Below are positions 14,794 to 31,940 of a DNA stretch of 57,992 nucleotides, one piece after another. The DNA lies in IMG/VR virus record IMGVR_UViG_3300031754_000006, positions 1-57,992 of that record. One strand, 5' to 3'. The notes beneath the pieces were generated by a model. It searched no databases. It had not been told where the DNA came from and worked only from the letters and a program-made list of their open reading frames with translations. Made by a program: the position numbers and the translations under genes. Origin of the DNA: a virus. Within the stretch, counting starts at the first letter, position 1. Each line of letters starts with the position of its first letter.

Positions 14794-14831
14794 TCGGGAT
14801 CTCCTTTGTTGGTTGTTAGACCCGAAGGCTA

Positions 14832-14859
14832 TGTATATACCGTCCATTGTATTTGTAAA
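14832..14859 (-). promoter_or_regulatory. Sigma70-like promoter
   Basis: On the minus strand TTTACA and TATACA are separated by 16 nt, close to the -35/-10 consensus. It lies between the hairpin that ends the array and the start of the 150-aa gene, giving a leader of about 35 nt with a good ribosome-binding site. Confidence 0.5.
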
Positions 14860-14895
14860 GCCCCTTACACATGTGCAGTACCATATGTAAGGGGC
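14860..14895 (-). other. Long hairpin at the 3' end of array 1
   Basis: A 10-bp perfect stem (GCCCCTTACA/TGTAAGGGGC) with a 16-nt loop. It follows the last pentamer of the array in the direction of transcription. On the minus strand CTTTAC follows the stem, a sequence also seen after the hairpin that follows array 2. It could be a terminator with a poor T tract, an RNA end-protecting structure or a processing site. Confidence 0.55.
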
Positions 14896-15295
14896 GCCTT
14901 GCTTTACTCGCCCTTGCACGTCCGCTCCGGGCCTTGCCTGCCTTGCCCATCCCCGCTTTACCACCCCTGACCTTGCCTGACCTCACCTGACCTTGCCTGC
15001 TGCGTTTAGCCTGTCCCTACCAAGCCAACCCAAGCCGGGCCAAGCCTGCTCTGCTACGCCTGTCCTTGCCCCTCCAGACCTTTCCTTACGCTGCCTGCCT
15101 TGCCTGCACTACCACGCCGATCCATGCCTAGCCGATCCGCGCCTTGCCTGCTCTGCCGTCCCGAGTTTGGCCGTTCCATTCTCGGCTCTGCCTGCATTGC
15201 CAGCCCTGTCCAAGCCTCTCCACTCACAGCCTCGCCTGCTTAGCCCAGCCTATCCGTACCTAACCGATCTCGACTTTGCCTGCCTTGCCCCACTG
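14896..15295 (-). repeat. Degenerate pentamer array 1 (NNNGG units with GCAGG hinges)
   Basis: About 400 nt without a gene. On the minus strand the sequence is a run of pentamers ending in GG. GCAGG occurs nine times, preceded by a 4-nt spacer (CTAA, CAAT, CAGA, CAAG and similar). In plus coordinates the hinges (CCTGC) are at 14937, 14996, 15045, 15094, 15103, 15147, 15191, 15235 and 15279. Distances are 59, 49, 49, 9, 44, 44, 44, 44, every one 5n+4. It begins right after the stop of the DUF433 gene and ends at a hairpin. Period 5 and stops in all frames exclude a protein-coding reading. Function unknown. Confidence 0.9.
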
Positions 15296-15502
15296 CTAGG
15301 GCTCACGGATCATCTGCATGGTTGTCCACGCTGCCAGTGAGCCTTCTATGTCTTCACGCGTCAGAGCCGGGTAATCCTCTAGGAGGGTTTCTATCGACTC
15401 TCCCTTGCGAAGCCTCCTGGCCACAAACTCCAAATGGATACGGGTCCCCTCAAAGACTGGCTCACCTCCCTGCACCTTCGGATTACATACTATCGCCTTC
15501 AT
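15296..15502 (-). CDS. DUF433-family antitoxin-like protein
   Basis: 68 aa, full length for the family. KVQGGEPVFEGTRIHLEFV and the C-terminal LTREDIEGSLAAWTTMQ helix are the signature of the DUF433 (VapB45-like) fold, a small winged helix-turn-helix usually paired with a PIN toxin. No PIN gene is next to it, so it is an orphan and may act as a regulator. Its stop codon forms the first bases of the array-1 leader. Confidence 0.75.
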   Translation of the reverse strand: MKAIVCNPKVQGGEPVFEGTRIHLEFVARRLRKGESIETLLEDYPALTREDIEGSLAAWTTMQMIREP

Positions 15503-16276: not shown

Positions 16277-16467
16277 TCGGTTCCTCCTTTACCTCTTCCG
16301 CTTGGTATTATCCGACTACAGTTGGCCTTACATATCCACCATTCCTTACTAAGCCTCCGTGATTCTACCGGACGACCTCCACACTCAGGACAGCGCCCCC
16401 GTAGTACCCTCCAGAGCCTACCAACCCAATTGGTTCCGGGCCCCTTCGGCGAGCTGTTTTTAGCCAT
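16264..16467 (-). CDS. Zinc-ribbon microprotein
   Basis: 67 aa from the ATG at 16467 (a GTG one codon earlier is possible). GRCPECGGRPVESRR and ICKANCSR give two Cys pairs of a zinc ribbon, followed by a basic tail. It overlaps the methyltransferase stop (TGATG), so it is translationally coupled. Function unknown, possibly nucleic-acid binding. Confidence 0.6.
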   Translation of the reverse strand: MAKNSSPKGPGTNWVGRLWRVLRGRCPECGGRPVESRRLSKEWWICKANCSRIIPSGRGKGGTEWSG

Positions 16468-17408
16468 CACGCGGTTCCTCCGTTGTAATTCAGCAGCGGC
16501 GCATCACCCAAGATCCTATCACGTGCCATGGTCGCATATTCTGGGTTTAGCTCGATACCTATAAATGAACGGCCATGACGAGCAGCCACCATCCCTACAG
16601 TACCCGTGCCTGCGAAGGGGTCCAATACCATGGAGCCGGGCGCAGATCCTGCTAGGACACAGCGCTCTGCTAAGTCCCAAGGCATGGTAGCGAAGTGGGC
16701 GCCTGCGAATGGCTTAGCCGTTATCGTCCAGACGCTGCGCGCGTTGCGGCTCTCCTTAACCTCTGTGTCGTGCTGAGTGAACCCAAATGCGGTAGCACCA
16801 TAATCCCCCTTAGCTCCATTCTTGGCCGTATCCGGATCCGTTGCATAAACGATCCGGCCTGCATGTAACGATGGCTCCATGATCGCATCCGCGTCATAGA
16901 AGTAGGTTGCTGACTTAGTCAGTAGGAACACATATTCATGGGCCTTAGTTGGGCGGTCGGTGACTGATTCAGGCATCGGATTAGGCTTGTGCCAAATCAC
17001 ATCCGAGCGCAGCCACCATCCATCAGCCTGTAGCGCAAGAGCCACGCGCCAAGGGATACCGATCAAATCCTTTGGTTTGATGCCTTCGCCTTGTTTGGTC
17101 GGCAACCCCACCGCTCTATATGCCGTATCTTGTTTTCCGGCCCCACCACTATTAGCCGCCCCCGCATATGAATCCCCAAGGTTAAGCCAGACCACGCCGT
17201 CGGGGCGCAAGATACGCCGCACCTCACGGAATACTTCTACCATCCTGGCTACGTATTCCCCGGGCGTGGATTCCATTCCGAGCTGATCCGCGTGCCCGTA
17301 ATCCCGTAGCCCCCAGTAGGGCGGGCTCGTCACGCAGCACTGCACGACCTCATCGGGTAGAGTGCGCATCACAGCGAGGCAGTCACCTTCCAGGATTTTC
17401 CAGGTCAC
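16467..17408 (-). CDS. Orphan DNA methyltransferase, TSPPY type
   Basis: 313 aa from a GTG at 17408 preceded by AAGGGG; a longer reading would add 77 low-complexity residues and overlap a separate membrane-protein gene. Catalytic motif IV is VTSPPYWGLRDYG near residue 30. The AdoMet motif is DPFAGTGTVGMVAARHG near the C-terminus with FIGIELNPEY after it, the beta-class order. TSPPYW favours N4-cytosine methylation, though N6-adenine cannot be excluded. No restriction partner is adjacent, so protection against host restriction is likely. Confidence 0.85.
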   Translation of the reverse strand: MTWKILEGDCLAVMRTLPDEVVQCCVTSPPYWGLRDYGHADQLGMESTPGEYVARMVEVFREVRRILRPDGVVWLNLGDSYAGAANSGGAGKQDTAYRAVGLPTKQGEGIKPKDLIGIPWRVALALQADGWWLRSDVIWHKPNPMPESVTDRPTKAHEYVFLLTKSATYFYDADAIMEPSLHAGRIVYATDPDTAKNGAKGDYGATAFGFTQHDTEVKESRNARSVWTITAKPFAGAHFATMPWDLAERCVLAGSAPGSMVLDPFAGTGTVGMVAARHGRSFIGIELNPEYATMARDRILGDAPLLNYNGGTA

Positions 17409-17490
17409 GACACCCCTTCTGGAATCGCTCCTAGCGAACGGAAAGGGGTCGCCCTTGCGTTTTCTCCCCTCGGCTGTCCCGGAGTGGCGG

Positions 17491-17685
17491 CTACCACAGC
17501 CACCCCCCTTTTTCACGGGTCTGCACGACCCGACCGAGCACGCCGTAATCGGGGGGCCTTTTCGGGGGCAGCAGTTCCCGGATACGGGCCCGCAGCTTCC
17601 ACGCGGCCAAGCCGGCAGGGAATAGGAATAGCCCGGCAAAGAGCAGGGCCAGGGTCACAGCGCTGCGTAAGCCAGTACCGCGCAT
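17491..17685 (-). CDS. Small single-TM protein
   Basis: 64 aa (or 55 aa from a GTG at 17658 that overlaps the upstream stop). Hydrophobic residues about 9-28 (AVTLALLFAGLFLFPAGLAA) are followed by a basic cytoplasmic-type tail (WKLRARIRELLPPKRPPD). The start is uncertain because no convincing Shine-Dalgarno is close to the ATG. Function unknown. Confidence 0.5.
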   Translation of the reverse strand: MRGTGLRSAVTLALLFAGLFLFPAGLAAWKLRARIRELLPPKRPPDYGVLGRVVQTREKGGWLW

Positions 17686-18618: not shown

Positions 18619-20007
18619 CTAGAACAGTGCCAGCTGATTAACATCCCTTTCGGGCTGCTCTAGACTTCCAATGTCTCGGCTGCGGGGCGCGTTCAGGGCC
18701 AAGTCAATGCGCCGCTCAGCGATGGCCGCGTAACCCGCGTCTCTGTCGATCCCGATGAAGTTGAAGCCGCACCGCACCGCTGCGCATCCGGTAGTGCCCG
18801 ATCCGAGGAACGGATCCAGCACCGTGCCTCCGGATGGCGTGACGAGCTTACAGAGCCATTCCATGAGCGCGATGGGCTTGACGGTCGGATGGACGTTGCG
18901 CGCTCCGCCGTTGCGTCCTGCGCCAGCGCGAGGGGAGTTGGATCCAAGCGTGCCCGGGGGCGTGTCGGTATTGATAACCCCAGGCTCGACATCCCAGAGC
19001 CCCGCGTCCCTCTCTCCACGGCTGGGCTTGGCCACGTAACGGAAGACGGGAAAGAATCGGGAGGCACCGCCGGAGTCGCCACCACCTACGCCAGATCTGG
19101 TGCCATATTTGCCGTAGATGCCAGCAGTGGTATCGCTAGGCGCGTTAGCGCTTGGGATGCCGCTCGTCAGCTCCCCGCTCTGCTCGTTCAGTTCCCGCAC
19201 CGGGCAGCCGCGCATGCACTCGCGACCGCACTCCGGATCATGGGTGAAGATGAGGTTAGGGGGCCAGCGGCCGGCGGAAGGATCCCACCCGGGCGGCAGA
19301 CCGCCACCCACGGAACCGCCGACATATGCATCCTTGGAGAATCCTCGTTCCCCGCCCGATCGCCTGGCGAGCGCCGCTAGGTCTTCACCGGGCGCCGTCC
19401 CTACCCTGCACGCCTCAATGTTCAGCCCCCCCGTCCCGTAGGCGAGCACGTTCGCGGCCACCGTCCCGATGAGCGGGCGCCTGGCGAGCACGATCGGCTC
19501 CCGGGCGGGCTTGAGAGCGGTGCCCCATCCGTCGTAGGCGGTAGCCGGGGCGGTAGCCGGGGCGTGCACGGTGGCGCCCAGGATGGAGTTTCCGCCATGC
19601 GTGCACGCCGAGCCACCGGGACAGGTACCTCCACGCTGTGGCCCGATGACCTGCCGCTCGGCTCCGAGCGCATCATCGATCGCCTTCGAGACGTTCAGGC
19701 TCTTGGGGAAGCCCGAGCCGAACACCCAGTCGATCGAGTCCCGGATCTCGAAGCCCGCATCCTCGATGGCGCACGCCATGCGGTGATATGTCCGCGGGCC
19801 GCCGAAAGCCAAGAGATGGCCTCCAGGCTTGAGCACGCGCAAAACCTCCCGCCACATCTCAACCGAATAAGCGATCCCGCTTGCATCCCAACTCTTGCCC
19901 ATGAATCCAAGTTCATAGGGGGGATCAGTTACTACCGAATCAACTGAGGCATCAGGCATCGCCCTCATAGCCGCGATGCAGTCGGATACGATAATCCGAT
20001 GGCTCAC
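18619..20007 (-). CDS. Orphan DNA methyltransferase, DPPY type
   Basis: 462 aa, GTG start overlapping the upstream stop. Motif IV, VVTDPPYELGFMGKSWD, is near residue 28. The AdoMet motif, TVLDPFLGSGTTGCAAV, followed by FIGIDRDAGYAAIAERRI, is near the C-terminus, the beta-class arrangement typical of N6-adenine enzymes. A Gly-rich insert of roughly 200 residues lies between, containing CGRECMRGCPVRELNEQSGE. HPTVKPIALMEWLCKLV is also typical. No restriction enzyme is nearby. Confidence 0.85.
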   Translation of the reverse strand: MSHRIIVSDCIAAMRAMPDASVDSVVTDPPYELGFMGKSWDASGIAYSVEMWREVLRVLKPGGHLLAFGGPRTYHRMACAIEDAGFEIRDSIDWVFGSGFPKSLNVSKAIDDALGAERQVIGPQRGGTCPGGSACTHGGNSILGATVHAPATAPATAYDGWGTALKPAREPIVLARRPLIGTVAANVLAYGTGGLNIEACRVGTAPGEDLAALARRSGGERGFSKDAYVGGSVGGGLPPGWDPSAGRWPPNLIFTHDPECGRECMRGCPVRELNEQSGELTSGIPSANAPSDTTAGIYGKYGTRSGVGGGDSGGASRFFPVFRYVAKPSRGERDAGLWDVEPGVINTDTPPGTLGSNSPRAGAGRNGGARNVHPTVKPIALMEWLCKLVTPSGGTVLDPFLGSGTTGCAAVRCGFNFIGIDRDAGYAAIAERRIDLALNAPRSRDIGSLEQPERDVNQLALF

Positions 20008-22731: not shown

Positions 22732-22994
22732 AGCTGGAGACCATCCAGGCCATCTGCGAGGTGGCCAACGAAGCCGAGGCCCATGCTGTCCTGGACAGCT
22801 ACTGGAACGACCTCCAGTGCCTCGGGGGCCGTGTGCTGCCCCCTGCCTTTGGCCGCCCTGAGTGGCGAGTGCAAGTCTTCTTCCCGGCCGAGGGCGTGCC
22901 CAAGGAGCTGCCCCTCCCTGCCGGTGTAACCCGCCTCACCATCCCTGCCGCCCTGCGGCGCATCTACGGAATCTTGGAGGTCGTGTGTCCGTGA
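22728..22994 (+). CDS. Hypothetical protein (88 aa)
   Basis: Overlaps the upstream stop by 4 nt. Mixed alpha/beta with a hydrophobic centre (GRPEWRVQVFFPAEGVPKEL). No family recognised. Its end overlaps the start of the first Cys/His microprotein. Confidence 0.5.
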   Translation: MKLETIQAICEVANEAEAHAVLDSYWNDLQCLGGRVLPPAFGRPEWRVQVFFPAEGVPKELPLPAGVTRLTIPAALRRIYGILEVVCP

Positions 22995-23206
22995 GCGAGC
23001 CCAGCAAATTCGATATGTGCGTCTGCGGCTGGACTCGGGTGCAGCACTGCGCCAAGGAGCCCCATCCCTGCTCGCACACGGTCTGTCGCTGTAAGGGATT
23101 CACACTCGCAAAGGGCAGTAATTACGATCTTACCGTCACTGGCGCGGTACGCAATAACCGCGACCTAGAAAATGCATCCTATCACACGCACGGCGGCTAT
23201 CACTAA
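22985..23206 (+). CDS. Cys/His microprotein, paralog 1
   Basis: 73 aa from a GTG at 22985 (GGAGG 4 nt upstream; a GTG at 22991 overlapping the previous stop is an alternative). FDMCVCGWTRVQHCAKEPHP followed by CSHTVCRCKGF gives the pattern C-x-C-G-W-x-R-x-Q-H-C-x4-P-H-x-C-x-H-x2-C-x-C, enough ligands for two zinc ions. Four more members lie at 25776-26870. The C-terminal half is His/Asn-rich and unlike the others. Function unknown. Confidence 0.65.
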   Translation: MSVSEPSKFDMCVCGWTRVQHCAKEPHPCSHTVCRCKGFTLAKGSNYDLTVTGAVRNNRDLENASYHTHGGYH

Positions 23207-23623
23207 ATGGATCGCCCTCTTCACTTCGACCGCCAGGGGAATCCCCTAGAAACCCTGGAGTGGGCCCGGCTCTTCGAGGACCGCGATGGCCGCATTGTAT
23301 CCCAGGTGGAGCTGCCCAATGGCAAATGGGTATCCACCGTATGGATTGGCACGGGTATGGGCTACGGCGACAGTCGTCCGCTCATCTTCGAGACCATGGT
23401 TTTTCCCACTGCGATCGGAGGCAGAGACCTAGACTGTGAGCGATATGCAACCGAGGCTGAAGCTTTAGCTGGCCACGCCGAGATGGTCAAGAAATGGAGA
23501 GTGCGCCCTAACAAACGCCTCAAGAAGCGCGTACGGGCTAAGAAGATCGGACGCCAGAGAGAAGACGCCCATAAGACGCACAGGCAGATGTATGCCTGGT
23601 ATCGAAAGCGCGGCGGCACTTAA
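23207..23623 (+). CDS. Hypothetical early phage protein of a recurring family
   Basis: 138 aa. WVSTVWIGTGMGYGDSRPLI, FETMVF and DCERYATEAEALAGHAEM form a pattern I recognise from uncharacterised proteins in many actinophage-like and other phages. The C-terminal part is strongly basic (RPNKRLKKRVRAKKIGRQRE). Function unknown. Confidence 0.65.
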   Translation: MDRPLHFDRQGNPLETLEWARLFEDRDGRIVSQVELPNGKWVSTVWIGTGMGYGDSRPLIFETMVFPTAIGGRDLDCERYATEAEALAGHAEMVKKWRVRPNKRLKKRVRAKKIGRQREDAHKTHRQMYAWYRKRGGT

Positions 23624-23661
23624 CACCGCAGCACACACCAATTGCAAAAGGAAGAAACCCA

Positions 23662-24369
23662 ATGGCATTCGCAGCTAAGCAAAAGGTCGAGATTACTCCC
23701 CCCAATCTCCAGCTAGTCAAGTTCCGGATCATCGGCACTAGTCCACTCGTCCAAAACAAGTTCAGCAGCCGCGCCCTGGAGGCCATGGCCGCCGATCAGC
23801 GCCTCGGCTCCGCCGCCGTGAAGCGCAAGAAGCGCGAGCCCAAGGACTTCGACCTGGCCGTCAAGGAGGCCACCCACTACGCCGATGCCGGCTGGTGCGG
23901 CCTCCCGGCCTCGGCCTTCCGCACGGGCCTCATCTCCACTTGCCGCCTCCTGGGTTTTCCGATGACTTTGGCCAAATTATCGGTATTTGTCGTCGCCGAT
24001 GGCTACGAGCGCGACAGATTCGGAGTGACGCCACTCGTCCGGATCACCAAGGGCAAGCCCGAGCGCACTGACTTTGCCGTGCGCAACGCCACGGGCGTAG
24101 CCGATATCCGCCCCCGCCCCATGTGGCCCGAAGGCTGGGAGGCGGTCATCTCCATTCGCTTCGACGCTGATCAGTTCACCGTGCAGGACGTGACCAACCT
24201 GCTATCCCGCATGGGCGAGCAGGTGGGGATCGGCGCGGGGCGGCACGACTCCAAGGACTCGGCCGGCATGGGCTGGGGCTGCTTCCGGATCGCCGATACC
24301 GTGGGCGGGGAGGCGCCTACCAAGAAGACCAGGGCGCCCAAGGAAGCAGTACAGGAGGAGGTTGGCTAA
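23662..24369 (+). CDS. Conserved-type phage protein with Gly-rich C-terminal signature
   Basis: 235 aa. Begins with a strand-rich segment (LQLVKFRIIGTSPLVQNKFS). The middle includes GLPASAFRTGLISTCRLLGF. Near the C-terminus is RMGEQVGIGAGRHDSKDSAG followed by MGWGCFRI. The order of a TSPL-type strand, a central helical region and a terminal Gly-rich loop is reminiscent of RAMP/Cas7-like RNA-binding folds, but this is a weak resemblance and no Cas neighbour exists. It is followed directly by the 157-aa gene and array 2. Confidence 0.55.
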   Translation: MAFAAKQKVEITPPNLQLVKFRIIGTSPLVQNKFSSRALEAMAADQRLGSAAVKRKKREPKDFDLAVKEATHYADAGWCGLPASAFRTGLISTCRLLGFPMTLAKLSVFVVADGYERDRFGVTPLVRITKGKPERTDFAVRNATGVADIRPRPMWPEGWEAVISIRFDADQFTVQDVTNLLSRMGEQVGIGAGRHDSKDSAGMGWGCFRIADTVGGEAPTKKTRAPKEAVQEEVG

Positions 24370-24843
24370 ATGCCAAGCGCAGCAGCCAAGCGGCTCAAGC
24401 GGGCCCGTACCCAGTCCATCCATGATGAGCTGGCCAACCTTTACCGATTGCATGGAGGTCTCAAGCCCGACGTGATCGTTGCCTGGGCTAAGAATAACCC
24501 TGCCAGCATCCTGCATTCTAAGTTTACGTGGGATGACAGTGAGGCTGCCAAGTCTTACCGCCTTTGGCAGGCGCGGCAGATTATCACAGAAGTAGAGGTG
24601 CAATACCCGGACGGCCATATACGGCGTGTGTATGTTTCGCCGATGGAGTCTCGCGGCACCCGAGGATATGCGACCTTGGTTGACGTTTTGTCCGATGAGG
24701 AGCGGCGAATTCAATATCTGCAACAGGCATATTCTGAGCTGGAGCGCACCGCCGCAAAATATCAGGACCTTGTGGAATTTGCTGGAGTCCGCAGGGCGAT
24801 TCGGGCTGCCGGCAGGAAACTGCCGAAGGCCAACAAGGAGTAG
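24370..24843 (+). CDS. Hypothetical early phage protein of a recurring family
   Basis: 157 aa, starting directly after the upstream stop. LANLYRLHGGLKPDVIVAWA, HSKFTWDDSEAAKSYRLWQA and DVLSDEERRIQYLQQAYSEL form a helical pattern found in many phage proteins of unknown function. The basic C-terminus (AIRAAGRKLPKANKE) suggests nucleic-acid contact. Its TAG stop is the first codon of the array-2 leader. Confidence 0.6.
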   Translation: MPSAAAKRLKRARTQSIHDELANLYRLHGGLKPDVIVAWAKNNPASILHSKFTWDDSEAAKSYRLWQARQIITEVEVQYPDGHIRRVYVSPMESRGTRGYATLVDVLSDEERRIQYLQQAYSELERTAAKYQDLVEFAGVRRAIRAAGRKLPKANKE

Positions 24844-25680
24844 CAGTAGGGGCAAGGTTGAGCTGCGCAGGCTAGGCGCGGAGAAGTCTGGTGAGGACGA
24901 GTGTGGAGCAGCGCGGTCGGGTTAGGCCAAGCAGGCGAGGAATGGACCGGTAACGAGAGGCAGAGATAAGCATGGCAGGTGGAGCAAGGACGTGTAAAGC
25001 CCGGGGCGGGCTGGCACGGCAGGCTGAACCTGGATAGGGTGGGCGAGGTGTGGTCGAGCCTGGACAAGCAGGCGTAGCATCGTACGGGTCGGCAAGGATA
25101 GGCGAGGCCAAGCAGGCCGGGAGTGGTAAGGCTCGCAAGGGCAGGGCTGCGCTGCGCGCGGAAGAGCAGGCAGAGCTAGGATTTGTACGGCATGGAGAGG
25201 CCCGGAGAAGCAAAGCAGGCAAGGAGCGGTAAGGGTCGGAGCCGTTAGGCAGAGCAGGCTTGGCTCGGGTCGGCTTGGGCAGGGTCGGAGCGGCTGGGCA
25301 ATTCAATGCAGGTTAAGCGTGGTGAAGCAGAGGGAGGCAAGGACTGGAACGGGATGGCTGAGCAATGCAGGCACGGACAGGTGAGGTATGGCACGGCACG
25401 GCACGCTAGGGCAAAGCAGGCACGGACAGGACCGGTAAGGTATGGAGCGGCACGTCGAGGCAAAGCAGGTCGAGCTTGGACCGGGATGGCGCGGTCAGGT
25501 GAAGCGTGGCGGGGCCAGGTCTGGCAGGCGTAGCAAGCAGTAAAGGGCAAGGCCAGGAGTGGACGCGATAGGCCAGGTGCAGCAGGCGCGGATCGGCAAA
25601 GCAGAGTGCGGGTCGGACGAGCACGGCAGGCGCGGATAGGTAAGGAAGAGGTCGGCGAGGGGAAGCACAGCAGGCTAAGG
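24844..25680 (+). repeat. Degenerate pentamer array 2 (NNNGG units with GCAGG hinges)
   Basis: About 840 nt without a gene. Pentamers ending in GG follow one another; the last G is almost invariant. The hinge, a 4-nt spacer (CAAA, CAAT, CACG, CCAA and similar) plus GCAGG, recurs at 24867, 24931, 24975, 25019, 25068, 25112, 25166, 25215, 25254, 25308, 25367, 25416, 25465, 25524, 25582, 25626 and 25670. Intervals are 64, 44, 44, 49, 44, 54, 49, 39, 54, 59, 49, 49, 59, 58, 44, 44: all 5n+4 except 58, which contains a second 4-nt step. Two further GCAGG occurrences (25141, 25279) are not preceded by a spacer. Same architecture and polarity relative to transcription as array 1. Function unknown. 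Confidence 0.9.
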
Positions 25681-25683
25681 AAT

Positions 25684-25709
25684 CCGTCAGCGCAATTGTG
25701 CATTGACGG
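25684..25709. promoter_or_regulatory. Nested palindrome after array 2
   Basis: Outer arms CCGTCA/TGACGG enclose GCGCAATTGTGC, itself a near-perfect palindrome centred on AATT. It lies immediately after the last pentamers and before a longer hairpin. It could be a protein-binding site or part of an RNA 3' structure. Confidence 0.45.
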
Positions 25710-25712
25710 CCA

Positions 25713-25755
25713 GGGGAGTCCGTAAACGACGATATCGCCCCGTAGCGGACTCCCC
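25713..25755 (+). other. Long hairpin at the 3' end of array 2
   Basis: Perfect 10-bp stem GGGGAGTCCG/CGGACTCCCC with a 23-nt loop. GCTTTAC follows the stem; CTTTAC also follows the hairpin after array 1. The next start codon is 20 nt downstream, so it could also shape the leader of the Cys/His microprotein cluster. No T run, so a simple terminator is unlikely. Confidence 0.55.
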
Positions 25756-25775
25756 GCTTTACCAGGAAGAAACCG

Positions 25776-26048
25776 ATGGCAGATAAAAAGCTTACCCCCT
25801 TCGATATGTGCGAGTGCGGTTGGACGCGCGTCCAGCACTGCGCCAGGGCTCCGCATCGGTGTACGCACCCGGGATGCTATTGCGTGGCGTTCAAGCTCTC
25901 TTCTGAGCCTGAACTTGACCGGCTGGATGAAGCCATCCGCACCACAAAGGCCCTGGCGCGGGCGCGGTTCTTTCCTGGGCTCGGACTGCGCGCAGATAGT
26001 ATCGATTACTTCATCAAGTGCGGTATTGAGCCCCTGGAGGAAAGCTAG
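25776..26048 (+). CDS. Cys/His microprotein, paralog 2
   Basis: 90 aa with AGGAAG before the ATG. FDMCECGWTRVQHCARAPHR then CTHPGCYCVAF gives the full C-x-C-G...H-C...H-x-C-x-H-x3-C-x-C pattern (the spacing varies by one residue among the copies). The acidic/helical tail (ELDRLDEAIRTTKALARARF, then FPGLGLRADS) matches the tail of paralog 3 in part. First gene after array 2. Confidence 0.65.
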   Translation: MADKKLTPFDMCECGWTRVQHCARAPHRCTHPGCYCVAFKLSSEPELDRLDEAIRTTKALARARFFPGLGLRADSIDYFIKCGIEPLEES

Positions 26049-26050
26049 CC

Positions 26051-26305
26051 ATGGCCGAAAGCCCATTTGATATGTGTCTCTGTGGCTGGAGCAGGATCCA
26101 GCACTGCGCTACCCCTCCGCATCCCTGCACACATGAGCGCTGTTGGTGTAAGGCATTTTGCTTCGCCCCCAATCACCCCCCCAAAGTTTCGGCTATCAAG
26201 GATGAGATGGATATGGCAGGCGCCAGGTTTTTTGACAGGTTTGGGTTGTACAGCGCTCCAGACGCAAAAACGCTGATCGCGCAAGGATTTACGCCTAAAG
26301 ACTAA
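26051..26305 (+). CDS. Cys/His microprotein, paralog 3
   Basis: 84 aa, GGAGGAAAGC upstream, 2 nt after paralog 2. FDMCLCGWSRIQHCATPPHP and CTHERCWCKAF repeat the family pattern. The tail (DMAGARFFDRFGLYSAPDAK) resembles the tail of paralog 2 (ARFFPGLGLRADS), indicating a duplication of the whole gene. Confidence 0.65.
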   Translation: MAESPFDMCLCGWSRIQHCATPPHPCTHERCWCKAFCFAPNHPPKVSAIKDEMDMAGARFFDRFGLYSAPDAKTLIAQGFTPKD

Positions 26306-26307
26306 TC

Positions 26308-26351
26308 AACTTGCCGCCCCTTTCCCAGGGGGGTGGCCCGGGTGGCAGGTT
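26308..26351 (+). other. RNA hairpin between paralogs 3 and 4
   Basis: AACTTGCCGCCC pairs with GGGTGGCAGGTT over 12 bp if two G-U wobbles are allowed, directly after the stop of paralog 3. A GC-rich inner pairing is also possible. No T run. Probably a processing or stabilising structure. Confidence 0.4.
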
Positions 26352-26404
26352 AATTCCTCCGGATGACGCCTGCTGCCCGGTTTTACCTACGGAGTAACCG
26401 AACG

Positions 26405-26674
26405 ATGAGCAAAGATCGCAAAGACACCGATGACCCGAGGGCATCCGATCTGTGCGCCGTGTGTCTGGGATCAGCCGACAATAACGGCGCCCCCAGGTGG
26501 CGTCACTGCGCCAAGCCTCCCCATAAGTGCAGCGTTTGTGACGTATGCCCAGGATTCCAGTACGGCGGCCGAGCACAGGCTATCCATCGCGCGCGGTGGG
26601 CCGAACACGTAGAGCATTACGTGGAGAAGGGCCATCCCCGCGAACAGGTCGAGTTGGCCATCAAAGGTGAATAA
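26405..26674 (+). CDS. Cys/His microprotein, paralog 4 (divergent)
   Basis: 89 aa; the start at 26405 has CGGAG upstream. DLCAVCLGSADNNGAPRWRH followed by CAKPPHKCSVCDVCPGF keeps the Cys pairs, the HCA-x2-PH core and the terminal Cys pair, with a longer first loop. The C-terminal part is helical (WAEHVEHYVEKGHPREQVEL). Confidence 0.6.
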   Translation: MSKDRKDTDDPRASDLCAVCLGSADNNGAPRWRHCAKPPHKCSVCDVCPGFQYGGRAQAIHRARWAEHVEHYVEKGHPREQVELAIKGE

Positions 26675-26675
26675 C

Positions 26676-26870
26676 ATGCGCCTATCTGAGACCAAGCCGG
26701 AAGACGATCCCGGGCTGGCCATGCCAAAGGGGCAGGAGCCCCACAAAACGGACGTTTGTGAGTGTACCGGCTTTAGGGATGAGCACTGCCTAGAAAAACC
26801 ACATCCGTGTCCTTGTGGCTGTAAGGCATTTAGATTTAGATCGAGATGGATAACCTTTGAAGGTGAGTGA
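26676..26870 (+). CDS. Cys/His microprotein, paralog 5 (divergent)
   Basis: 64 aa from the ATG at 26676 with AAAGGTG upstream. DVCECTGFRDEHCLEKPHPC followed by PCGCKAFRF retains the C-x-C, H-C, P-H-x-C and C-x-C elements in a shorter frame. The acidic N-terminal segment is unrelated to the other members. Confidence 0.6.
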   Translation: MRLSETKPEDDPGLAMPKGQEPHKTDVCECTGFRDEHCLEKPHPCPCGCKAFRFRSRWITFEGE

Positions 26871-31827: not shown

Positions 31828-31901
31828 ACCCATGTAGCTCAACGGTAAAGCCCAGCCCGCCTTCAAGCTGGAGACTGCGGGTTCAAGTCCCGCCGTGGGC
31901 C
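31828..31901 (+). tRNA. tRNA-like gene with an enlarged anticodon loop
   Basis: Acceptor ACCCATG pairs with CGTGGGC except for an A-C mismatch at 1-72. The D-arm region is TAGCTCAACGGTAAAGC and the T-arm GCGGG-TTCAAGT-CCCGC is perfect. The anticodon stem CCAGC/GCTGG encloses ten nucleotides (CCGCCTTCAA) instead of seven, and base 26 seems missing. It resembles bacterial tRNA-Gly elsewhere. The isotype cannot be assigned; TCA and TTC are possible readings. It may be a degenerate or specialised tRNA. Confidence 0.6.
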
Positions 31902-31940
31902 CTTCACACGCAACACGCGGCGCATTTAAGGAGGCACCAA

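What the first reader, a model, noticed from the sequence alone, without database searches (positions are those of the whole stretch)
22985..26870. Five-member family of Cys/His microproteins around array 2
Genes at 22985, 25776, 26051, 26405 and 26676 encode 64-90 aa proteins with the plan C-x-C-G-W-x-R-x-Q-H-C-x4-P-H-x-C-x-H-x2-C-x-C, variably eroded in the last two. Four lie in tandem straight after array 2. Such an expansion in a compact phage genome suggests diversification under host pressure, for example inhibitors of different host targets or RNA binders acting with the array transcript.
Basis: partly seen in the sequence, partly recalled or inferred. Interest (0 to 1): 0.7.

Follow-up and report, generated by a model that had tools for sequence, protein, structure and literature searches.

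The report
Five duplicated phage zinc-type microprotein genes
An uncultured phage carries five small cysteine- and histidine-rich genes that arose by old duplications; they look like an unusual, so far unique version of a very common but uncharacterised kind of phage mini-protein that probably binds zinc, and they are not tied to the neighbouring DNA repeat array.

Summary
The five-member family is real: all share eight invariant Cys/His in the plan C-x-C-x3-R-x2-H-C-x3-P-H-x-C-x(2-4)-C-x(1-2)-C-x2-F (member D has a longer first part). Cores of the three closest members show purifying selection at near-saturated synonymous change, so the duplications are old. The exact motif occurs four times in the window and nowhere in 2.9 million IMG/VR contigs; no Pfam, NCBIfam or PDB family matches. 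The window family has Trp for the post-CG His and adds a Cys and a His. The link to the pentamer array is not supported: 22 of 25 relatives of the array-side gene and three cultured phages have the array without the family, and 0 of 120 generic-motif loci has an array. Best explanation: lineage-specific, duplicated variant of a common zinc-stabilised accessory microprotein, probably protein-binding. Zinc and function are inferred; RNA binding with the array is disfavoured, multi-target host inhibition unproven.

The parts
22991..23206 (+). CH_A, 71 aa, Cys/His microprotein (GTG start overlapping the upstream stop; alternative GTG at 22985)
25776..26048 (+). CH_B, 90 aa, Cys/His core plus C-terminal tail; best match to the generic CxCGH profile
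26051..26305 (+). CH_C, 84 aa, Cys/His core plus C-terminal tail like CH_B
26405..26674 (+). CH_D, 89 aa, variant with C-x2-C, insertion in the first part, C-x2-C-x2-C end
26676..26870 (+). CH_E, 64 aa, variant without CGW, C-x2-C-x-C end
24845..25690 (.). period-5 GG-rich array (array 2): neighbour, not part of the family
25713..25755 (+). hairpin with perfect 10-bp arms between array 2 and the ribosome-binding site of CH_B
26313..26380 (+). double hairpin between CH_C and CH_D (z -3.3)

Best explanation
The five genes are old duplicates, within one phage lineage, of a small accessory protein whose core is folded around metal, most likely two zinc ions held by C,C,H,C,H,C,C,C. The core is a variant (Trp in place of the His after C-x-C-G, with an added Cys after the second His and an added Pro-His) of a very common, unnamed phage motif C-x-C-G-H-x4-H-xn-C-x(2-4)-C-x-C-x2-F, which occurs as tiny stand-alone proteins and as part of larger phage ORFs. 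It most likely works as a zinc-stabilised protein-interaction module made early in infection, the copies differing in loops and tails and so perhaps in partner. Shown: gene family, motif, purifying selection, register match to the generic motif, absence of coupling to the array. Inferred: zinc, early expression, protein binding, different partners.
For: Five aligned ORFs with eight invariant C/H. The generic motif is natural: of 120 pattern matches 106 are in frame and open, 86 of 106 have His at the unspecified position after CG and 63 the unspecified first Cys. Profile-profile match of the family (A1) to the generic set (A4): E 8e-7, ligand columns in register; score 28.7 against a best of 18.8 in 200 column-permuted controls. 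The generic profile ranks CH_B first of 1144 window ORFs, E 1.2e-5. Generic motif found in Brocalys gp56 (among HTH, WhiB and RecA-like genes) and ODay gp115, both 'hypothetical protein', and inside ORFs matching portal/protease, terminase, NUDIX, PolA and HTH families. AF2 with generic rows reached mean pLDDT 81.9 for CH_B. pN 0.18-0.23 against pS 0.63-0.89 in the A, B, C cores. Near-neutral charge.
Against: The generic set was fetched with a pattern that fixes seven of the shared positions, so the profile score is inflated; only CH_B passes a strict threshold when members are scored singly. The His after CG, present in most generic members, is missing in all five. Only one of five AF2 models was confident (62-69 for the rest) and no solved or predicted fold matches. 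No functional data; no convincing promoter.
Confidence: 0.5

Rival explanations
1. Inhibitors of several host targets, diversified under host pressure.
For: Five divergent copies in one phage genome; placed beside the recombination genes Gam and Erf; variable tails.
Against: Core under purifying selection; no close homologue to show rapid turnover; no match to a described family in the libraries searched.
Confidence: 0.25
2. RNA or DNA binders acting with the array transcript or array DNA.
For: Four genes lie directly after array 2; Cys/His knuckles often bind nucleic acid (general knowledge).
Against: Array conserved without the family in 22 of 25 relatives and three cultured phages; generic motif without any array in 120 loci; no family member near array 1; near-neutral proteins.
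Confidence: 0.07
3. Metallothionein-like metal buffers, amplified for dosage.
For: Many Cys/His in 30 residues; the C-x-H-x2-C-x-C end in A-C resembles the end of bacterial SmtA-type metallothioneins (from memory); gene amplification is typical of metallothioneins (general knowledge).
Against: No Pfam or NCBIfam match at E up to 10; conserved R, P, F (and W, Q in three) and exactly eight invariant ligands suggest a defined fold; variable tails are not needed for buffering.
Confidence: 0.1

Closest known systems
Unnamed phage CxCGH motif proteins, e.g. Mycobacterium phage Brocalys gp56 (YP_009303895.1), Gordonia phage ODay gp115 (QSL99858.1); PHROG 17060 touches both
   Same: Size, C-x-C-G-x5-H spacing, C-x(2-4)-C-x-C-x2-F end; in Brocalys a neighbourhood of regulator and recombination genes
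   Different: Window family has Trp (or neither) for the His after CG, an extra Cys after the second His, a conserved Pro-His-x-Cys, and five paralogues; no generic locus examined has such a cluster
FAM221A/B (PF14753), eukaryotic, function unknown to me
   Same: Six of 48 generic phage segments match weakly (best E 0.004)
   Different: No match to the window family itself; below curated cut-offs
Bacterial metallothioneins (SmtA type)
   Same: Cys/His density, C-x-H-x2-C-x-C end in three members (recalled)
   Different: No profile match; different ligand number and spacing
RING/cross-brace and zinc-ribbon domains
   Same: Eight ligands in four pairs could hold two zinc ions
   Different: Pairs are C-x-C, H-C, H-x-C, C-x-C instead of C-x2-C knuckles; no sequence or fold match

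Membership tests
Phage CxCGH motif class (defined here) | C-x-C-G at the start of the core | tested here: inconclusive
   Met in A, B, C; E has C-x-C without G; D has C-x2-C
Phage CxCGH motif class (defined here) | His directly after C-x-C-G (86 of 106 pattern matches) | tested here: not met
   Trp in A, B, C; absent in D, E. Hence filed as a variant resembling the class, not as a plain member
Phage CxCGH motif class (defined here) | His seven residues after the second core Cys, and C-x(2-4)-C-x-C-x2-F end | tested here: met
   Same spacing in A, B, C, E; D deviates (C-x2-C-x2-C-x2-F)
Phage CxCGH motif class (defined here) | profile similarity beyond composition | tested here: met
   hhalign E 8e-7; score 28.7 against 18.8, best of 200 permutations; caveat of a pattern-chosen set
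Bacterial metallothionein | match to a curated family model | tested here: not met
   No Pfam or NCBIfam match at E up to 10
Array-associated RNA-binding system | co-occurrence of family and pentamer array | tested here: not met
   Array without family in 22 of 25 relatives and three cultured phages; generic motif without array in 120 loci
Zinc-binding domain | zinc bound by the invariant Cys/His | not testable with these tools
   Only inferred from eight invariant ligand-type residues

The most novel reading that the evidence does not exclude
A phage-specific two-zinc microfold with a C,C,H,C,H,C,C,C ligand set, expanded into five paralogues with different tails that each bind a different host protein, derived from a large uncharacterised class of phage CxCGH microproteins.
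Probability: 0.2. Interest if true: 0.65.

Novelty: new variant of a known kind. Interest (0 to 1): 0.38.

Why it matters
It links an apparently orphan paralogue family to a motif that recurs in many phages under 'hypothetical protein' and matches no curated family above cut-off. If the class is a zinc-held interaction module, one structure and one set of pull-downs would inform a large number of small phage genes; the five-copy genome is a natural comparison set for which residues set the fold and which set the partner.

Tried and rejected
Related loci by degenerate peptide patterns in viral and GTDB contigs: none confirmed. Exact motif in IMG/VR: none. Half-motif: three hits, one unrelated sequence. 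GTDB motif scan: four hits, not credible. Klebsiella phage KMI hits: antisense to a virion gene, rejected. CGW version of the generic pattern: 17 hits, judged spurious. tblastn in plasmids and phages: nothing. Family in 25 relatives by phrog_4652 and 3 by terminase: absent; one terminase relative has only the first half of the generic motif. AF2 of CH_C with the family alone: useless. PDB and BFVD fold searches: nothing significant. FAM221 model on the window: no match. Literature searches: nothing relevant.

Full report
Observation. The window is a whole 57,992-base virus record. Five + strand ORFs at 22991 (or 22985), 25776, 26051, 26405 and 26676 align with 13 invariant columns, among them C, C, H, C, H, C, C, C. 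A profile of the five finds only these five in the window, E 1e-39 to 1e-15, and the DNA pattern of the motif matches four times with 0.00 expected. All have plausible ribosome-binding sites; the first most likely starts at GTG 22991. In cores A, B, C the proportion of nonsynonymous change is 0.18-0.23 against 0.63-0.89 for synonymous change: real, selected genes from old duplications. B, C and D also carry a C-terminal tail, with recognisable similarity between B and C.

Distribution. There is no Pfam, NCBIfam or PDB relative and only weak PHROG leads, the best phrog_17060, E 0.0095. The exact motif is absent from IMG/VR and has no credible hit in GTDB contigs. The tools may leave out near copies of the window's own genome, so 'unique' means unique in what was searched.

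Relation to a wider motif. Prompted by memory of similar phage proteins, I scanned IMG/VR for C-G-x5-H-xn-C-x(2-4)-C-x-C-x2-F. The same scan with Trp fixed after CG gave 17 matches, none convincing. The window family aligns to the class with the shared ligand columns in register (hhalign E 8e-7; score 28.7 against a best of 18.8 for 200 column permutations), and a profile of the class ranks CH_B first in the window, E 1.2e-5. Because the pattern fixed seven of the shared positions, these numbers overstate the independent evidence. Some class members also hit phrog_17060, the same family as the weak hit of CH_A. Cultured examples are Brocalys gp56, 51 aa, next to HTH, WhiB and RecA-like genes, and ODay gp115. 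The motif is also part of longer ORFs matching portal/protease, terminase, NUDIX, PolA and HTH families. The class itself matches no NCBIfam model and only weakly Pfam FAM221 (6 of 48, best E 0.004). Alignment with the class gave one confident AF2 model of CH_B (81.9; the other four 62-69); CH_C with the family alone gave 45.7, but the two runs differ in the query as well as in depth. No fold match was found.

The array. Period-5 arrays lie at about 14831-15323 and 24845-25690. Among 25 IMG/VR relatives of the gene at 23662 (phrog_4652), 22 have such an array, and so do the same regions of cyanophage Cy-LDV1, Brocalys and ODay; none of the 25 records carries the window family, and the motif pattern found no CGW form in the three cultured phages. 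None of 120 loci of the generic motif has such an array in 1.04 Mb. The array goes with the phrog_4652/phrog_15946 pair, not with the Cys/His genes; adjacency in the window is best taken as an accident of gene order. Two hairpins flank genes of the group and may shape its expression.

Mechanism. Shown: family, motif, selection, register match, no coupling with the array. Inferred: two zinc ions, from eight invariant ligand-type residues in four pairs; loss of the His after CG compensated by the extra Cys and Pro-His; protein binding, from neutral charge, small size and the presence of the motif within larger ORFs; different partners, from different tails. I hold a zinc-stabilised early interaction module as most likely (0.5), multi-target host inhibition 0.25, metallothionein-like buffering 0.1 and array binding 0.07.

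Noticed in passing
24845-25690; L013-L037, L176-L178: A GG-rich period-5 array next to the phrog_4652/phrog_15946 gene pair is conserved in 22 of 25 IMG/VR relatives and in Cy-LDV1, Brocalys and ODay, phages of cyanobacteria and actinobacteria; it deserves its own study.
   Followed up: partly
14831-15323: Array 1, same period, with no Cys/His family member near it.
   Followed up: partly
25713-25755 and 26313-26380: Strong hairpins before CH_B and between CH_C and CH_D, not scored as terminators.
   Followed up: partly
31828-31902: tRNA-like gene with a two-base anticodon call by ARAGORN; the Rfam tRNA model also matches (40.7 bits).
   Followed up: no
16467-17639 and 18619-20007, minus strand: Two genes matching the same phage DNA methyltransferase family, phrog_67.
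   Followed up: no
L039-L158: Widespread phage motif CxCGHx4H...CxCxxF, stand-alone and inside larger ORFs, with no curated family above cut-off; weak resemblance to eukaryotic FAM221.
   Followed up: partly
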